Shown piece by piece: positions 3,231-34,531 of a stretch of DNA of 64,000 bases (its first letter is position 1; each line of letters opens with the position of its first letter). Made by a program: the position numbers and the translations under genes. The stretch spans positions 1 through 64,000 of IMG/VR virus record IMGVR_UViG_3300008267_000018; one strand, 5' to 3'. The notes beneath the pieces were generated by a model, which made no database searches, had not been told where the DNA came from, and saw only the letters and a program-made list of their open reading frames with translations. This DNA is from a virus.

Positions 3231-4463
3231 TTACTGCTTGTTTTTTGTTTTCTTTTTATTTTTAGGCGCATCTGCCTTGATCCCAAGTGTTGATTGAAAT
3301 ACGTCATTAAACTGAGAAGCAACCGTATCCCATGCAAAACAAGGATCTGTTACGCGTTTGTAGCATGCTTGTGCAACTTTCTCAAGGCGAGGACGGTTTT
3401 CGTAAAGCTCGGCAAGCAGCTCTGCCAGATGATTATCGTCTGGGCATGGCATGATGCGACCAAAATTAGTATCCACATCTGCATGCAGCGAACGAATAAG
3501 TTCGCCGTGTCCATCAAAGATCTCTTTGCAAGAGGTATGATCCGGAACAATTTGAGCAACACCACAAGCCGCATGTTCAAAATTGACCAGGCCCCAACCT
3601 TCCCCTTTGCACGTATTAACGCCTACATCTGCGACGTTATAAATAGTGTTTAAAAGTTCTACAGAAACAGACGGCGGATGTGCGCCTGGTGTCGTCATAA
3701 TAATTCGATTGTTAGGATCTAGTCCTTGACGACTCATTTCACGTGCAAAAAGCGGCATGATATCCCAGCCTTGATCTTTTAGTCCCATGTGCAAATACAG
3801 CTTTGCATTGGGACGACCAATTGCAAATTTTGCAAATCCGCTAATAGTGATATCAAGACGTTTGCGAAATTGATTTCGATTACCATTGAAGACAATAAAG
3901 TCTTCAGCATTTAAGCCGAGTTCTTTTCGGCATTCGAGTTTATCCTTGGGATAAAACTGACCTGACGTTACGCCATGAGGAATAACGTGGATTTCTTTTT
4001 GAGCCCCCGCTCGAATTGTTTCATAAGCGCCAAAGTTTGTGTAGCAGATAGCTGCATCCCACTCGTTGAGGGTATCCATTAATCCGCCATACCACTCATA
4101 AGAATCCATTGGATAGTACCCAATGAATTTAAAATTTAAACTTGAGCGCAAATCTGCGATACGCCTCCATTGCTCATTAATAATCCAAACATCATTGATG
4201 GTAAAAACAACATCAGGCTTTACCCGTTCAACAATTTCGCGGATACGATCTTCGCCAAAGGGTGCGTGCTGGAATCGGTTAGACGCCGGATATAGCCGAT
4301 ACACTTCTTGTAAAGGAGTGTAGTCCCCGTGCCAGTTGCATCCCAGAACATGGATTTCATATTTATTTTTTAAACGCTCAAGCACATTCTCCGTTACACG
4401 GGCAAAACCCGTAGTCGCCACAATATCACCAATCCACAAAAGTTTAGGCTTTGCTGTTGCCAT
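3231..4463 (-). CDS. Glycosyltransferase, GT-B fold, GT4-like
   Basis: 410 residues. N-terminal Rossmann half begins LLWIGDIVATTGFARVTENV, as in GT4 enzymes. The C-terminal half has the nucleotide-sugar loop: KGEGWGLVNFEHAACGVAQI carries the E-x7-E signature of retaining GT4 transferases, followed by PDHTSCKEIF. It ends in a Lys-rich tail. Together with the GT2/epimerase/RfbH-like operon at 11-14 kb it suggests glycan decoration of the virion or remodelling of host surface polysaccharide; donor and acceptor are unknown. Confidence 0.85.
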   Translation of the reverse strand: MATAKPKLLWIGDIVATTGFARVTENVLERLKNKYEIHVLGCNWHGDYTPLQEVYRLYPASNRFQHAPFGEDRIREIVERVKPDVVFTINDVWIINEQWRRIADLRSSLNFKFIGYYPMDSYEWYGGLMDTLNEWDAAICYTNFGAYETIRAGAQKEIHVIPHGVTSGQFYPKDKLECRKELGLNAEDFIVFNGNRNQFRKRLDITISGFAKFAIGRPNAKLYLHMGLKDQGWDIMPLFAREMSRQGLDPNNRIIMTTPGAHPPSVSVELLNTIYNVADVGVNTCKGEGWGLVNFEHAACGVAQIVPDHTSCKEIFDGHGELIRSLHADVDTNFGRIMPCPDDNHLAELLAELYENRPRLEKVAQACYKRVTDPCFAWDTVASQFNDVFQSTLGIKADAPKNKKKTKNKQ

Positions 4464-9087: not shown

Positions 9088-9261
9088 TTACTTGGACTCA
9101 CCAGACACAGACTGGGATTTTTCAATTTCATCATCCCATTCTTTCATGATTTGATTGTAAGAATCCACCGGATCCCTGCCAGTCTCAATGCAAGACGAGG
9201 TTGCGACGGACCATGCAATACGCTTGCGTCTTTCCAAGGGATCATCAGTATTCCAGGGCAT
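9088..9261 (-). CDS. Small hypothetical protein (57 aa)
   Basis: MPWNTDDPLERRKRIAW start at 9261 chosen over 9270. Contains GRDPVDSYNQIMKEWDDEIE, acidic and helical. It is the upstream-most gene of the leftward block; the 70-base gap before it and the AT-rich 9262-9334 interval would hold divergent promoters. Confidence 0.55.
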   Translation of the reverse strand: MPWNTDDPLERRKRIAWSVATSSCIETGRDPVDSYNQIMKEWDDEIEKSQSVSGESK

Positions 9262-15094: not shown

Positions 15095-15123
15095 ATCTCG
15101 GCTTGAGCAACCGAGATTTTTTG
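15095..15123 (+). terminator. Rho-independent terminator
   Basis: Stem ATCTCGG / CCGAGAT with a 9-base loop, followed by six T. It closes the rightward operon (10.5-15.0 kb). Confidence 0.85.
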
Positions 15124-15130
15124 TTATACT
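15103..15130 (+). promoter_or_regulatory. Candidate promoter of the large structured RNA
   Basis: TTGAGC (15103-15108) and TATACT (15125-15130) are spaced 16 bases apart, with predicted start near 15137. The -35 lies inside the preceding terminator loop, so the two signals are interleaved. Confidence 0.45.
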
Positions 15131-15136
15131 ACTAAG

Positions 15137-15520
15137 TGATAGAGGCCAGGTCCCTGTACGCGTTAGGCACATAGCCTAGAAGGCGACACACCTGGTCCAT
15201 CACACCACCCCTATTGCTTTGTCGGTAGGGTGCAACGCATGGACCGGAAATTTCCAGTCGCCGCGTTTGCGTTAAGTCCTGCGCATGCAGGCCAGGGGTG
15301 ATCAACCCTGCCAGTTAAATCCACTGGTGAGCCGGGGACCTATTAGGCAAGCTCAATGGATTTTGTATGTAAAGCCCTGAAGCGAGCCAGGTTTTGCGAC
15401 CTGGCAACATACAGCAACACCCCTCATGCCTAGCTTGATAACGAGGACGGCTTTACACCGGGCGCACGGGCTTGCAGGCATCCTCACTCAGTTATTAATG
15501 ACGCACAAACCGAGGGGTCA
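15137..15520 (+). ncRNA. Large ornate structured RNA, GOLLD/ROOL-like candidate
   Basis: No ORF of note, but dense complementary helices: CCAGGT 15145/ACCTGG 15190; TAGGC 15164/GCCTA hairpin; GGCGAC about 15182/GTCGCC about 15257; CACCCCTA/TAGGGTG hairpin about 15205-15232; CAGGG/CCCTG and CCAGT/ACTGG hairpins 15290-15328; TGTATGT 15364/ACATACA 15406 enclosing the GCCAGGT/ACCTGGC hairpin 15385-15404; ATGCCT/AGGCAT 15426-15481; and a long-range ACCCCTC 15419-15425/GAGGGGT 15512-15518. Multi-branched size, location next to tRNA-like elements and phage context fit the GOLLD/ROOL class of giant RNAs known from phages and lake metagenomes. The class label is inference. Confidence 0.55.
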
Positions 15521-15522
15521 CT

Positions 15523-15593
15523 CAACCGGTAGTCCAGTGGCAGGACACCCCGACAAGGGAGTTAGATAGTTGGTTCGATTCCAACGCGGTTGA
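15523..15593 (+). tRNA. tRNA-like element 1 (degenerate anticodon arm)
   Basis: Acceptor arms CAACCGG / GCGGTTG pair except for one G-G, the D arm GTCC / GGAC is perfect, and the T arm GTTGG-TTCGATT-CCAAC is canonical, with A as discriminator. The anticodon arm (CCCCGACAAGGG) has only a 3-4-bp stem and no U33, so decoding is doubtful. No encoded CCA. It may be a part of the large RNA. Confidence 0.4.
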
Positions 15594-15595
15594 TT

Positions 15596-15670
15596 CACCT
15601 GGTCCGAGACAATTGGATAGTACGGCTGCTGCGCTGCAGGGCGATGTAGGTTCGAATCCTACCCAGGTGC
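15596..15670 (+). tRNA. tRNA-like element 2 (hexaloop anticodon arm)
   Basis: Acceptor CACCTGG / CCAGGTG is perfect and the T arm GTAGG-TTCGAAT-CCTAC canonical. The D arm is weak (CCG / CGG) and the anticodon stem CTGC / GCAG closes a 6-base loop TGCGCT instead of 7. The isotype cannot be assigned. Directly follows element 1 with two bases between. Confidence 0.4.
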
Positions 15671-15699
15671 TTTAGAGTGAGCAAACTCAAGCAAGTCAA

Positions 15700-16332
15700 A
15701 TGAGTTACCTCAATCACAACCTACCTACGTTCACGTGTTACATCCGAAACGAATTCCTATACAACCACAAGCAAGGCCAGGGTGATGTGACGTTGTGCGA
15801 TGTCCACTCAGTGGCTTCCCTGGAGAAACACGTCCCTTTATTTGAAGTCTTTTTAGAGAATGGTGTCAACTGGACAAGGCGTCCAATTCACGCTCTCTGC
15901 TGGAAGCCAGACGCCCCTAAGCCTGAGCTTAATGAATGCATGTGGTGGGATTGTTTCTCTCCGTATATTGATGTGCAAGTCCGGTCACGCCTCTCAAACT
16001 TACGTGCCCAGCTAATTACTTTTAAAGGGGAGAAGAAAGGTGGAGTCTATATGTTCACCCTTGACTGGTCATGGGAATCTAAATCAACTCTTAATACAAA
16101 CTTTAGTGAAACACCTGAGCATAAGTGTGCGCACTTCTTCCGGATGGATGATGGCAACTTCTATGCGTATCCCAATAACCGAGTCATCTGGTACGACGAT
16201 GCCTGGCTTAAGAACCGCATTGAAAAAAATCCTGGTTACGAGATTGACTTGACTGAGTACAGCGTGGAGAATTCACGGATGATTGAAACGTCCGATCACT
16301 TTATATACGAGACAACAGTCACAAGCAACTAG
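15700..16332 (+). CDS. Conserved-looking phage protein, function unknown
   Basis: 210 residues, rich in aromatic residues: FLENGVNWTRRPIHALCW, LNECMWWDCFSPYIDVQVR and GGVYMFTLDWSWESKS. Compact and soluble-looking with CDVHSV and NNRVIWYDD. No enzyme motif recognised. It follows the structured RNA/tRNA-like region and precedes two HNH genes. Confidence 0.6.
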   Translation: MSYLNHNLPTFTCYIRNEFLYNHKQGQGDVTLCDVHSVASLEKHVPLFEVFLENGVNWTRRPIHALCWKPDAPKPELNECMWWDCFSPYIDVQVRSRLSNLRAQLITFKGEKKGGVYMFTLDWSWESKSTLNTNFSETPEHKCAHFFRMDDGNFYAYPNNRVIWYDDAWLKNRIEKNPGYEIDLTEYSVENSRMIETSDHFIYETTVTSN

Positions 16333-34455: not shown

Positions 34456-34531
34456 TGGTACCCGAGGTGAGATTCGAACTCACGCTTGAGGACTTTTAAG
34501 GTCCTTGCCTCTTCCGCTGGGCTACTCGGGC
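34456..34531 (-). tRNA. tRNA with UAA anticodon (Leu by codon), class I shape
   Basis: 76 nt with encoded CCA. Acceptor GCCCGAG / CTCGGGT, D arm GCC / GGC, anticodon stem AGGAC / GTCCT, loop CTTAAAA (U33 correct; anticodon UAA), T arm GTGAG-TTCGAAT-CTCAC, A73 then CCA. U8, A14, T54, T55, C56, A58 all in place. Anticodon UAA reads UUA (Leu), but Leu tRNAs normally have a long variable arm and this one has 5 bases. The first 10 bases overlap the end of the 34522 gene. Confidence 0.85.

What the first reader, a model, noticed from the sequence alone, without database searches (positions are those of the whole stretch)
15103..15690. Large multi-helix RNA region followed by two tRNA-like elements (GOLLD/ROOL-like candidate)
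About 560 bases between genes hold no ORF but many long-range and local complementary pairs, including ACCCCTC 15419/GAGGGGT 15512, ATGCCT/AGGCAT around 15426-15481, TGTATGT/ACATACA around 15364-15412 and GGCGAC/GTCGCC around 15182-15262. A terminator and a -35/-10 pair lie just upstream, and two tRNA-like folds with degenerate anticodon arms follow. Giant ornate RNAs (GOLLD, ROOL) are known in phages and often neighbour tRNAs, with GOLLD first found in a lake; this fits that description but the label is inference.
Basis: partly seen in the sequence, partly recalled or inferred. Interest (0 to 1): 0.85.

Follow-up and report, generated by a model that had tools for sequence, protein, structure and literature searches.

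The report
Phage tRNA-linked RNA decoy array
A lake cyanophage carries a tandem array of small folded RNAs, one derived from the RNA antidote (abiF) of a bacterial suicide toxin and another a tRNA look-alike with a non-anticodon arm, which most likely act as RNA decoys against host defences rather than as one giant GOLLD/ROOL-type RNA.

Summary
In detail: 15138-15670 is a structured, non-coding stretch behind a conserved promoter. It is not GOLLD/ROOL/HEARO: no Rfam hit to them even at E<=10. Relatives show a mosaic of separately shuffled small RNAs. M1 (15138-15201): covarying H-type pseudoknot, in at least 120 viral contigs, often ending 0-4 nt before a tRNA; no Rfam family. M2 (15274-15362): covarying, no Rfam family. 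M3: hairpin. M4 (15419-15518): abiF-RNA derivative whose apical loop has grown to 73 nt; in the orthologous locus L414 the same slot holds a canonical abiF RNA (46.6 bits). TLE1 (15523-15593): tRNA body whose anticodon arm is replaced by a covarying stem, GACAA pentaloop and invariant bulged A. TLE2 follows. abiF RNA is the antitoxin of the HEPN toxin AbiF. These phages carry the RNA without the toxin: Abi_2 in 0 of 22 phage records, against 14 of 17 abiF-RNA-bearing bacterial genomes. Best explanation: an RNA anti-defence array, an AbiF antitoxin mimic plus other decoys, on a tRNA-type precursor. Anatomy and orphan status are shown; neutralisation of a host AbiF is inferred. abiF RNA in one cyanophage (S-CREM1) was already reported, without this interpretation in the passages read.

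The parts
15095..15122 (+). Terminator hairpin of the upstream genes (ATCTCGG/CCGAGAT, then T6)
   Evidence: Read from sequence; stem letters change on both sides in L007, L015, L025 and S-EIV1.
15103..15130 (+). Promoter of the array (TTGAGC-16-TATACT)
   Evidence: Consensus scan; TATAAT 12-13 nt before M1 in L007, L011, L016, L025, L031, L321.
15138..15201 (+). M1: H-type pseudoknot, AGAGG 15141-15145 with CCCT 15152-15155, CCAGGT 15146-15151 with ACCTGG 15190-15195, a TAGGC/GCCTA hairpin between, outer GAT/ATC
   Evidence: 73 unique copies: B/B' paired in 347 of 366 cells, shuffle maximum 279 of 1000; at least 120 viral contigs.
15206..15232 (+). Hairpin CACCCCTA/TAGGGTG
   Evidence: Read from sequence and predicted fold; similar hairpin in L016; function unknown.
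15234..15273 (+). Hairpin closed by AACGCA/TGCGTT around GGACCGGAAATTTCCAGTC
   Evidence: Occurs directly before M4 in L016 and before M2 in L006.
15274..15362 (+). M2: structured module, two hairpins and a helix TGAGC/GCTCA inside AATCC/GGATT
   Evidence: 13 unique sequences with changes on both sides in several helices; lies directly before canonical abiF RNA in L182, L256, L414.
15364..15413 (+). M3: hairpin closed by TGTATGT/ACATACA with inner GCCAGG/CCTGGC
   Evidence: Also in L020 without M2.
15419..15518 (+). M4: abiF-derived RNA, CCCCTC-A-TGC-[73-nt loop]-GCA-CAAACC-GAGGGG-T
   Evidence: Pattern unique in the window, none in 40 shuffled windows; canonical abiF RNA in the same slot in L414 (46.6 bits) and L321 (49.7 bits); loop series 23/56/58/73 nt.
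15523..15593 (+). TLE1: tRNA-like element, canonical D and T arms, anticodon arm replaced by ACCCC-GACAA-GGG-A-GT (GACAA at 15552-15556)
   Evidence: ARAGORN 'tRNA-???'; 66 unique copies, arm stem covaries, bulged A in all 66, GACAA in nearly all.
15596..15670 (+). TLE2: second tRNA-like element, acceptor CACCTGG/CCAGGTG, unusual anticodon arm
   Evidence: Homologues in L011, L020, L031, L194, L212, L243, L414; not called by ARAGORN in the window.

Best explanation
The region is one transcription unit that makes a string of small structured RNAs used as decoys against host RNA-based defences. The best identified module, M4, descends from abiF RNA, the RNA antitoxin that binds and silences the HEPN toxin AbiF; the phage has the antitoxin RNA but no toxin. 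During infection it would bind AbiF of the host or of a rival mobile element, keep it inactive and prevent abortive infection, as pseudo-ToxI does for ToxN. The tRNA-like elements downstream probably give the precursor tRNA-type ends: RNase P cleavage at their 5' side would free the 3' end of M4. They may also be decoys for tRNA-cutting or tRNA-binding host factors, since the anticodon arm of TLE1 is replaced by a conserved non-anticodon hairpin. M1 and M2, with pseudoknot-like folds and similar positions, are candidate mimics of other antitoxins. Shown: anatomy, covariation, modularity, homology of M4 to abiF RNA, absence of AbiF. Inferred: transcription, processing, AbiF binding, and the roles of M1, M2, TLE1 and TLE2.
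For: Canonical abiF RNA stands in the slot of M4 in the orthologous locus L414 and in L321. abiF RNA is found in cyanophages S-SZBM1, S-CREM1, S-SRM01 and mycobacteriophage Baka. The RNA is an orphan: Abi_2 in 0 of 22 phage records, at least 13 of which carry abiF or abiF-like RNA, against 14 of 17 bacterial genomes that carry the RNA; 111 of 113 viral abiF sites have no AbiF-like gene within 3 kb. abiF RNA RCd22 neutralises AbiF in cis and in trans by direct binding (PMC12373285). An RNA antitoxin mimic in a phage has a precedent, pseudo-ToxI (PMC3475682). Cyanobacterial plasmids carry AbiF with an upstream abiF-like RNA. M1, M2 and TLE1 covary. The modules sit directly before tRNAs: next tRNA within 40 nt in 57 of 68 abiF cases and 63 of 108 M1 cases.
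Against: The conserved apical loop CUCUCAACGAU is replaced in the window copy and Rfam does not score it, so AbiF binding may be lost or changed. No AbiF was shown in a known host of these phages. No expression or binding data. M1 and M2 were not found beside any toxin gene (plasmids only). Adjacency to tRNAs could equally mean a role in tRNA metabolism.
Confidence: 0.55

Rival explanations
1. The modules are 5'-leader elements that help make or stabilise phage tRNAs (5'-end protection, RNase P recruitment, transcript stability); abiF-like sequence has been reused for that purpose.
For: M1 and abiF RNA end 0-9 nt before many different tRNAs; M1 lies close behind promoter-like sequence.
Against: Canonical phage abiF RNA keeps the same core AAGCYTCTCAAYGATGCTCAAA as in bacteria, where it lies beside AbiF, which tRNA processing would not require; several unrelated modules occupy the same place; many phage tRNAs lack any of them.
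Confidence: 0.2
2. M4 in this phage is a decaying or diverged relic of an abiF mimic that no longer binds AbiF, while M1 and TLE1 have unrelated functions.
For: The 73-nt expansion removes most of the conserved loop; sub-threshold for Rfam.
Against: Outer and inner stems and CAAA are kept in all nine expanded copies, with compensatory changes inside the insertion (window GAGGA/TCCTC, S-EIV1 GAGAA/TTCTC; read). Cyanobacterial AbiF RNAs also have altered, hairpin-capped apical parts.
Confidence: 0.15
3. The RNA belongs to a complete phage-borne AbiF system used to exclude other phages.
For: Some prophages carry complete AbiF systems (PMC12373285); 2 of 113 viral sites have an AbiF-like gene nearby.
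Against: No Abi_2 protein in the window record or in 21 other phage records, including complete isolates.
Confidence: 0.05
4. A single large ornate RNA of the GOLLD/ROOL kind.
For: Long, structured, phage-borne, next to tRNA-like elements.
Against: No Rfam match up to E=10; parts occur separately and in other orders; one part is abiF-derived.
Confidence: 0.03

Closest known systems
abiF RNA (Rfam RF03085), antitoxin RNA of AbiF, such as RCd22 of Clostridioides difficile
   Same: Outer 6-bp stem, unpaired A, 3-bp inner stem, CAAA linker, GGGGU end; canonical members in orthologous phage loci.
   Different: Window copy has a 73-nt apical loop and does not score with the Rfam model; no AbiF gene in the phage.
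pseudo-ToxI of phage PhiTE (Blower 2012, PMC3475682)
   Same: Phage non-coding RNA resembling the RNA antitoxin of a host abortive-infection toxin, without the toxin.
   Different: Different toxin family (ToxN, not AbiF); repeats of one element rather than a mosaic; not tied to tRNA genes; function there is experimentally shown.
abiF sRNA of cyanophage S-CREM1 (PMC9964418)
   Same: abiF RNA in a cyanophage tRNA cluster, 4 nt before tRNA-Gly.
   Different: Reported there as a conserved sRNA; the passages read do not discuss toxin neutralisation; M1, TLE1 and the mosaic are not described in them.
Racr RNA anti-CRISPRs (PMC10651486)
   Same: Phage non-coding RNA that mimics an RNA part of a host defence system (abstract).
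   Different: They mimic CRISPR repeats; none of the modules here was tested against CRISPR repeats.
Theta ribozymes beside phage tRNAs (PMC10879173)
   Same: Small structured RNAs adjacent to phage tRNAs.
   Different: Here the modules mostly lie 5' of the tRNA; M1 lacks elements of the HDV fold as I recall it; no Rfam ribozyme match.
GOLLD and ROOL RNAs
   Different: No covariance-model match; composed of independent modules.

Membership tests
abiF RNA (RF03085) | Outer 6-bp stem, unpaired A, 3-bp inner stem and CAAA linker | tested here: met
   CCCCTC-A-TGC...GCA-CAAACC-GAGGGG; inner pair switches A-U/U-A across copies.
abiF RNA (RF03085) | Apical loop CUCUCAACGAU | tested here: not met
   Window loop is 73 nt; only the AYGAY end is kept. 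Met in L414 and L321 in the same slot.
abiF RNA (RF03085) | Covariance-model score above the gathering cut-off (37 bits) | tested here: not met
   No match in the window up to E=10; orthologous L414 46.6 bits and L321 49.7 bits. The window copy is therefore filed as abiF-derived, not as a member.
abiF RNA (RF03085) | Partner AbiF (Abi_2, PF07751) encoded next to it | tested here: not met
   Absent from the 84.6-kb record and from 21 other phage records; present in 14 of 17 bacterial genomes with the RNA.
RNA antitoxin mimic (pseudo-ToxI kind) | Neutralises a host toxin during infection | not testable with these tools
   Needs expression or infection experiments.
RNA antitoxin mimic (pseudo-ToxI kind) | A cognate toxin exists in potential hosts | tested here: inconclusive
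   AbiF with an upstream abiF-like RNA on cyanobacterial plasmids; Synechococcus/Cyanobium chromosomes could not be searched.
tRNA (RF00005) | tRNA body with covarying acceptor and T stems | tested here: met
   TLE1 copies score 33.3 and 32 bits, cut-off 29, in L003 and L414; covariation.
tRNA (RF00005) | 7-nt anticodon loop on a 5-bp stem | tested here: not met
   Replaced by a GACAA pentaloop on a stem with an invariant bulged A.
GOLLD / ROOL / HEARO | Covariance-model match | tested here: not met
   No match at gathering score or up to E=10.
Theta / HDV-like ribozyme | Nested double pseudoknot with self-cleavage beside a tRNA | tested here: not met
   No Rfam ribozyme match; M1 topology lacks a hairpin between B and the second strand of the first stem. 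Cleavage itself was not testable.

The most novel reading that the evidence does not exclude
Cyanophage tRNA clusters are RNA anti-defence islands: shuffling cassettes of RNA decoys, each cut out by tRNA processing and each aimed at a different host RNase (abiF type against AbiF, M1 and M2 against unknown toxins with RNA antitoxins, TLE1-type tRNA look-alikes against tRNA-cutting enzymes). Part of the debated function of phage tRNA arrays would then be to carry RNA antitoxin mimics.
Probability: 0.33. Interest if true: 0.92.

Novelty: new variant of a known kind. Interest (0 to 1): 0.8.

Why it matters
If true, aquatic phages widely carry an RNA antidote to AbiF, the family proposed as ancestor of Cas13, and keep it next to tRNA genes together with at least two covarying RNA families absent from Rfam (M1, M2) and a tRNA-like family with a non-anticodon arm (TLE1). 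It gives a concrete, testable reason for part of the non-coding content of phage tRNA clusters, and a way to find unknown toxins: look for what M1, M2 and TLE1 bind in cyanobacteria.

Tried and rejected
GOLLD/ROOL/HEARO, RNase P, riboswitch or ribozyme families: no Rfam match. tmRNA: ARAGORN finds none. Complete phage-borne AbiF system: no Abi_2. Plasmid homologues of M1/M2 or of the 73-nt-loop M4: none convincing. The pairs ATGCCT/AGGCAT and GGCGAC/GTCGCC were dropped as not conserved. A first alignment of whole loci showed mosaic structure rather than one alignable RNA, so modules were analysed one by one. A regular expression meant to count expanded-loop abiF copies was faulty and returned none ('abiFx'); it was replaced by that.

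Full report
What is there. The window is 64 kb of an 84.6-kb virus record. Between a row of small basic genes and the gene at 15700 lies an interval that is also without annotated genes, for the most part, in the syntenic phage S-EIV1, a freshwater Synechococcus phage. Its DNA is 87% identical to S-EIV1 over 15416-15595. Complementary 7-mers are about twice as frequent as expected (23 against 10.3, 2 of 300 shuffles as high) and the fold is better than most shuffles (z -2.7).

It is not GOLLD or ROOL. No Rfam model reaches its gathering score at the site, and up to E=10 only three unrelated matches far below threshold appear.

It is a mosaic. A pattern scan for the tRNA-like element found 29 viral contigs. 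Alignment and blast of the window against them, and against the loci of a second scan, show sharp breakpoints that cut the region into modules: M1, two hairpins, M2, M3, M4, TLE1, TLE2. Each occurs in other orders or in other company. For example L016 lacks M2 and M3, L020 has M3 without M2, L194, L212 and L243 place TLE2 directly after abiF RNA, and L188 has TLE1 before abiF RNA.

M4 is abiF-derived. cmscan of relatives gave abiF RNA (RF03085) in S-SZBM1 at 55.7 bits, in S-CREM1, S-SRM01 and mycobacteriophage Baka at 52.2, 49.3 and 39.7 bits, and in L256 at 55.7 bits. The decisive locus is L414. It has the same terminator-promoter, M1, M2, TLE1 and TLE2 as the window, with a canonical abiF RNA (46.6 bits) where the window has M4. 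L321 has canonical abiF RNA (49.7 bits) directly before TLE1. The window copy is CCCCTC-A-TGC-[73]-GCA-CAAACC-GAGGGG-T. This pattern with the AYGAY loop end is unique in the window and absent from 40 shuffled windows. Copies with loops of 23, 56, 58 and 73 nt form a series, and the inner stem switches between AGC/GCT and TGC/GCA. Because the conserved loop and the model score are not met, the window copy is called abiF-derived, not a member.

The RNA is an orphan. A gene family next to abiF RNA in bacteria was assembled from the genome scan and one representative was confirmed as Abi_2, PF07751. PF07751 is absent from the window record and from 21 further phage records including complete genomes, but is found in 14 of 17 bacterial genomes that carry the RNA. 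At least 13 of the 22 phage records carry abiF or abiF-like RNA (my count). Of 113 canonical abiF sites in viral loci only 2 have an AbiF-like gene within 3 kb; many of these loci are fragments, and that search used a profile built from mostly Bacteroidota sequences. The abiF RNA of C. difficile neutralises AbiF in cis and in trans by direct binding, and stem integrity matters (PMC12373285). Phage PhiTE evades ToxIN with an antitoxin-mimicking RNA (PMC3475682). An antitoxin mimic is therefore the most economical function, but it is inferred.

Hosts. Cyanobacteria do have AbiF: plasmids of Picosynechococcus PCC 7002, 8807 and 73109, Synechococcus NIES-970, Synechocystis PCC 6714 and Cyanobacterium aponinum PCC 10605. 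In four loci examined (PCC 7002, PCC 73109, NIES-970, PCC 6714) the AbiF gene is preceded by an RNA with the same outer stem, A, CAAA and GGGU end but a hairpin-capped apical part that Rfam does not score. The expanded loop of the window copy may therefore be a cyanobacterial trait rather than decay. Whether the actual hosts carry AbiF is unknown.

M1 is a real RNA family. Without specifying the B or B' letters, 73 unique copies show them complementary in 347 of 366 cells against a maximum of 279 in 1000 partner shuffles, with 21 different B sequences. A second helix pairs AGAGG with CYCU, giving an H-type pseudoknot (read from sequence; these letters were fixed by the search pattern, so they do not test it). 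The next tRNA starts within 40 nt in 63 of 108 M1 cases and 57 of 68 abiF cases. In the S-EIV1-like group a TATAAT box starts 12-13 nt before M1, and a -10-like box lies within 20 nt in 84 of 142 copies (no chance level was computed for these AT-rich flanks), so M1 probably starts the transcript. Among isolates M1 and TLE1 were found only in Synechococcus phages and cyanophages. Rfam has no match to M1. M2 shows changes on both sides in several helices in 13 sequences.

TLE1 is not a worn-out tRNA. In 66 unique copies the acceptor and T stems covary as in tRNA. The anticodon arm is replaced by a stem whose inner four pairs are kept in 62, 66, 66 and 65 of 66 copies, each above every shuffle, a GACAA loop, and an A bulge on the 3' side in every copy. 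The fifth pair, at the base, is not better than shuffles. The same arm sits on other tRNA-like bodies in L196 and L215. It cannot read codons by known rules; a protein-binding or decoy role is inferred.

What was known. The S-CREM1 paper (PMC9964418) reports an abiF sRNA in that cyanophage as conserved and probably functional; the passages retrieved do not mention toxin neutralisation. Searches of the held open-access library found no paper proposing phage abiF RNA as an antitoxin mimic; subscription papers were not searchable.

Limits. Locus flanks are short. Shuffles do not remove relatedness of sequences. No expression or binding data exist here.

Noticed in passing
L173, L176, L178, L182, L193, L226, L256 (just 3' of abiF RNA): A further kind of tRNA-like element, with short D-arm and an anticodon arm of the form CTAGGC-AGATA-GCCTAG (5-nt loop). 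The same hairpin sits inside M1 of the window (15164-15180) and alone in S-SZBM1 (L005 about 2900-2920).
   Followed up: partly
L270 2509-2544 and 13 other Mycobacterium phage records: abiF RNA also in lytic mycobacteriophages (Baka, Optimus, Wanda and others), about 270 nt before tRNA-Gly in Baka; overlaps the annotated start of a hypothetical gene.
   Followed up: partly
L432 3869-3924 and 3930-3985: Two M1 pseudoknots in direct tandem, 5 nt apart, reminiscent of tandem RNA antitoxin repeats.
   Followed up: no
L196 and L215, just 3' of abiF RNA: The GACAA plus bulged-A arm of TLE1 on clearly different tRNA-like bodies.
   Followed up: no
L002 about 4190-4290: The TLE2 homologue of S-EIV1 appears to have a hairpin insertion in its anticodon arm.
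   Followed up: no
L027 7281-7366: A match above cut-off to selenocysteine tRNA (49.2 bits, cut-off 47) and a wcaG RNA at 9088-9187 in a viral contig that also carries TLE1.
   Followed up: no
L267 746-1644: In S-CREM1 wcaG RNA, TLE1, manA RNA and abiF RNA lie among tRNAs within 900 nt, so wcaG and manA may also be tRNA-cluster modules rather than only gene leaders.
   Followed up: no
window 34456-34531, minus strand: The only ordinary tRNA found in the window, tRNA-Leu(TAA), far from the array.
   Followed up: no
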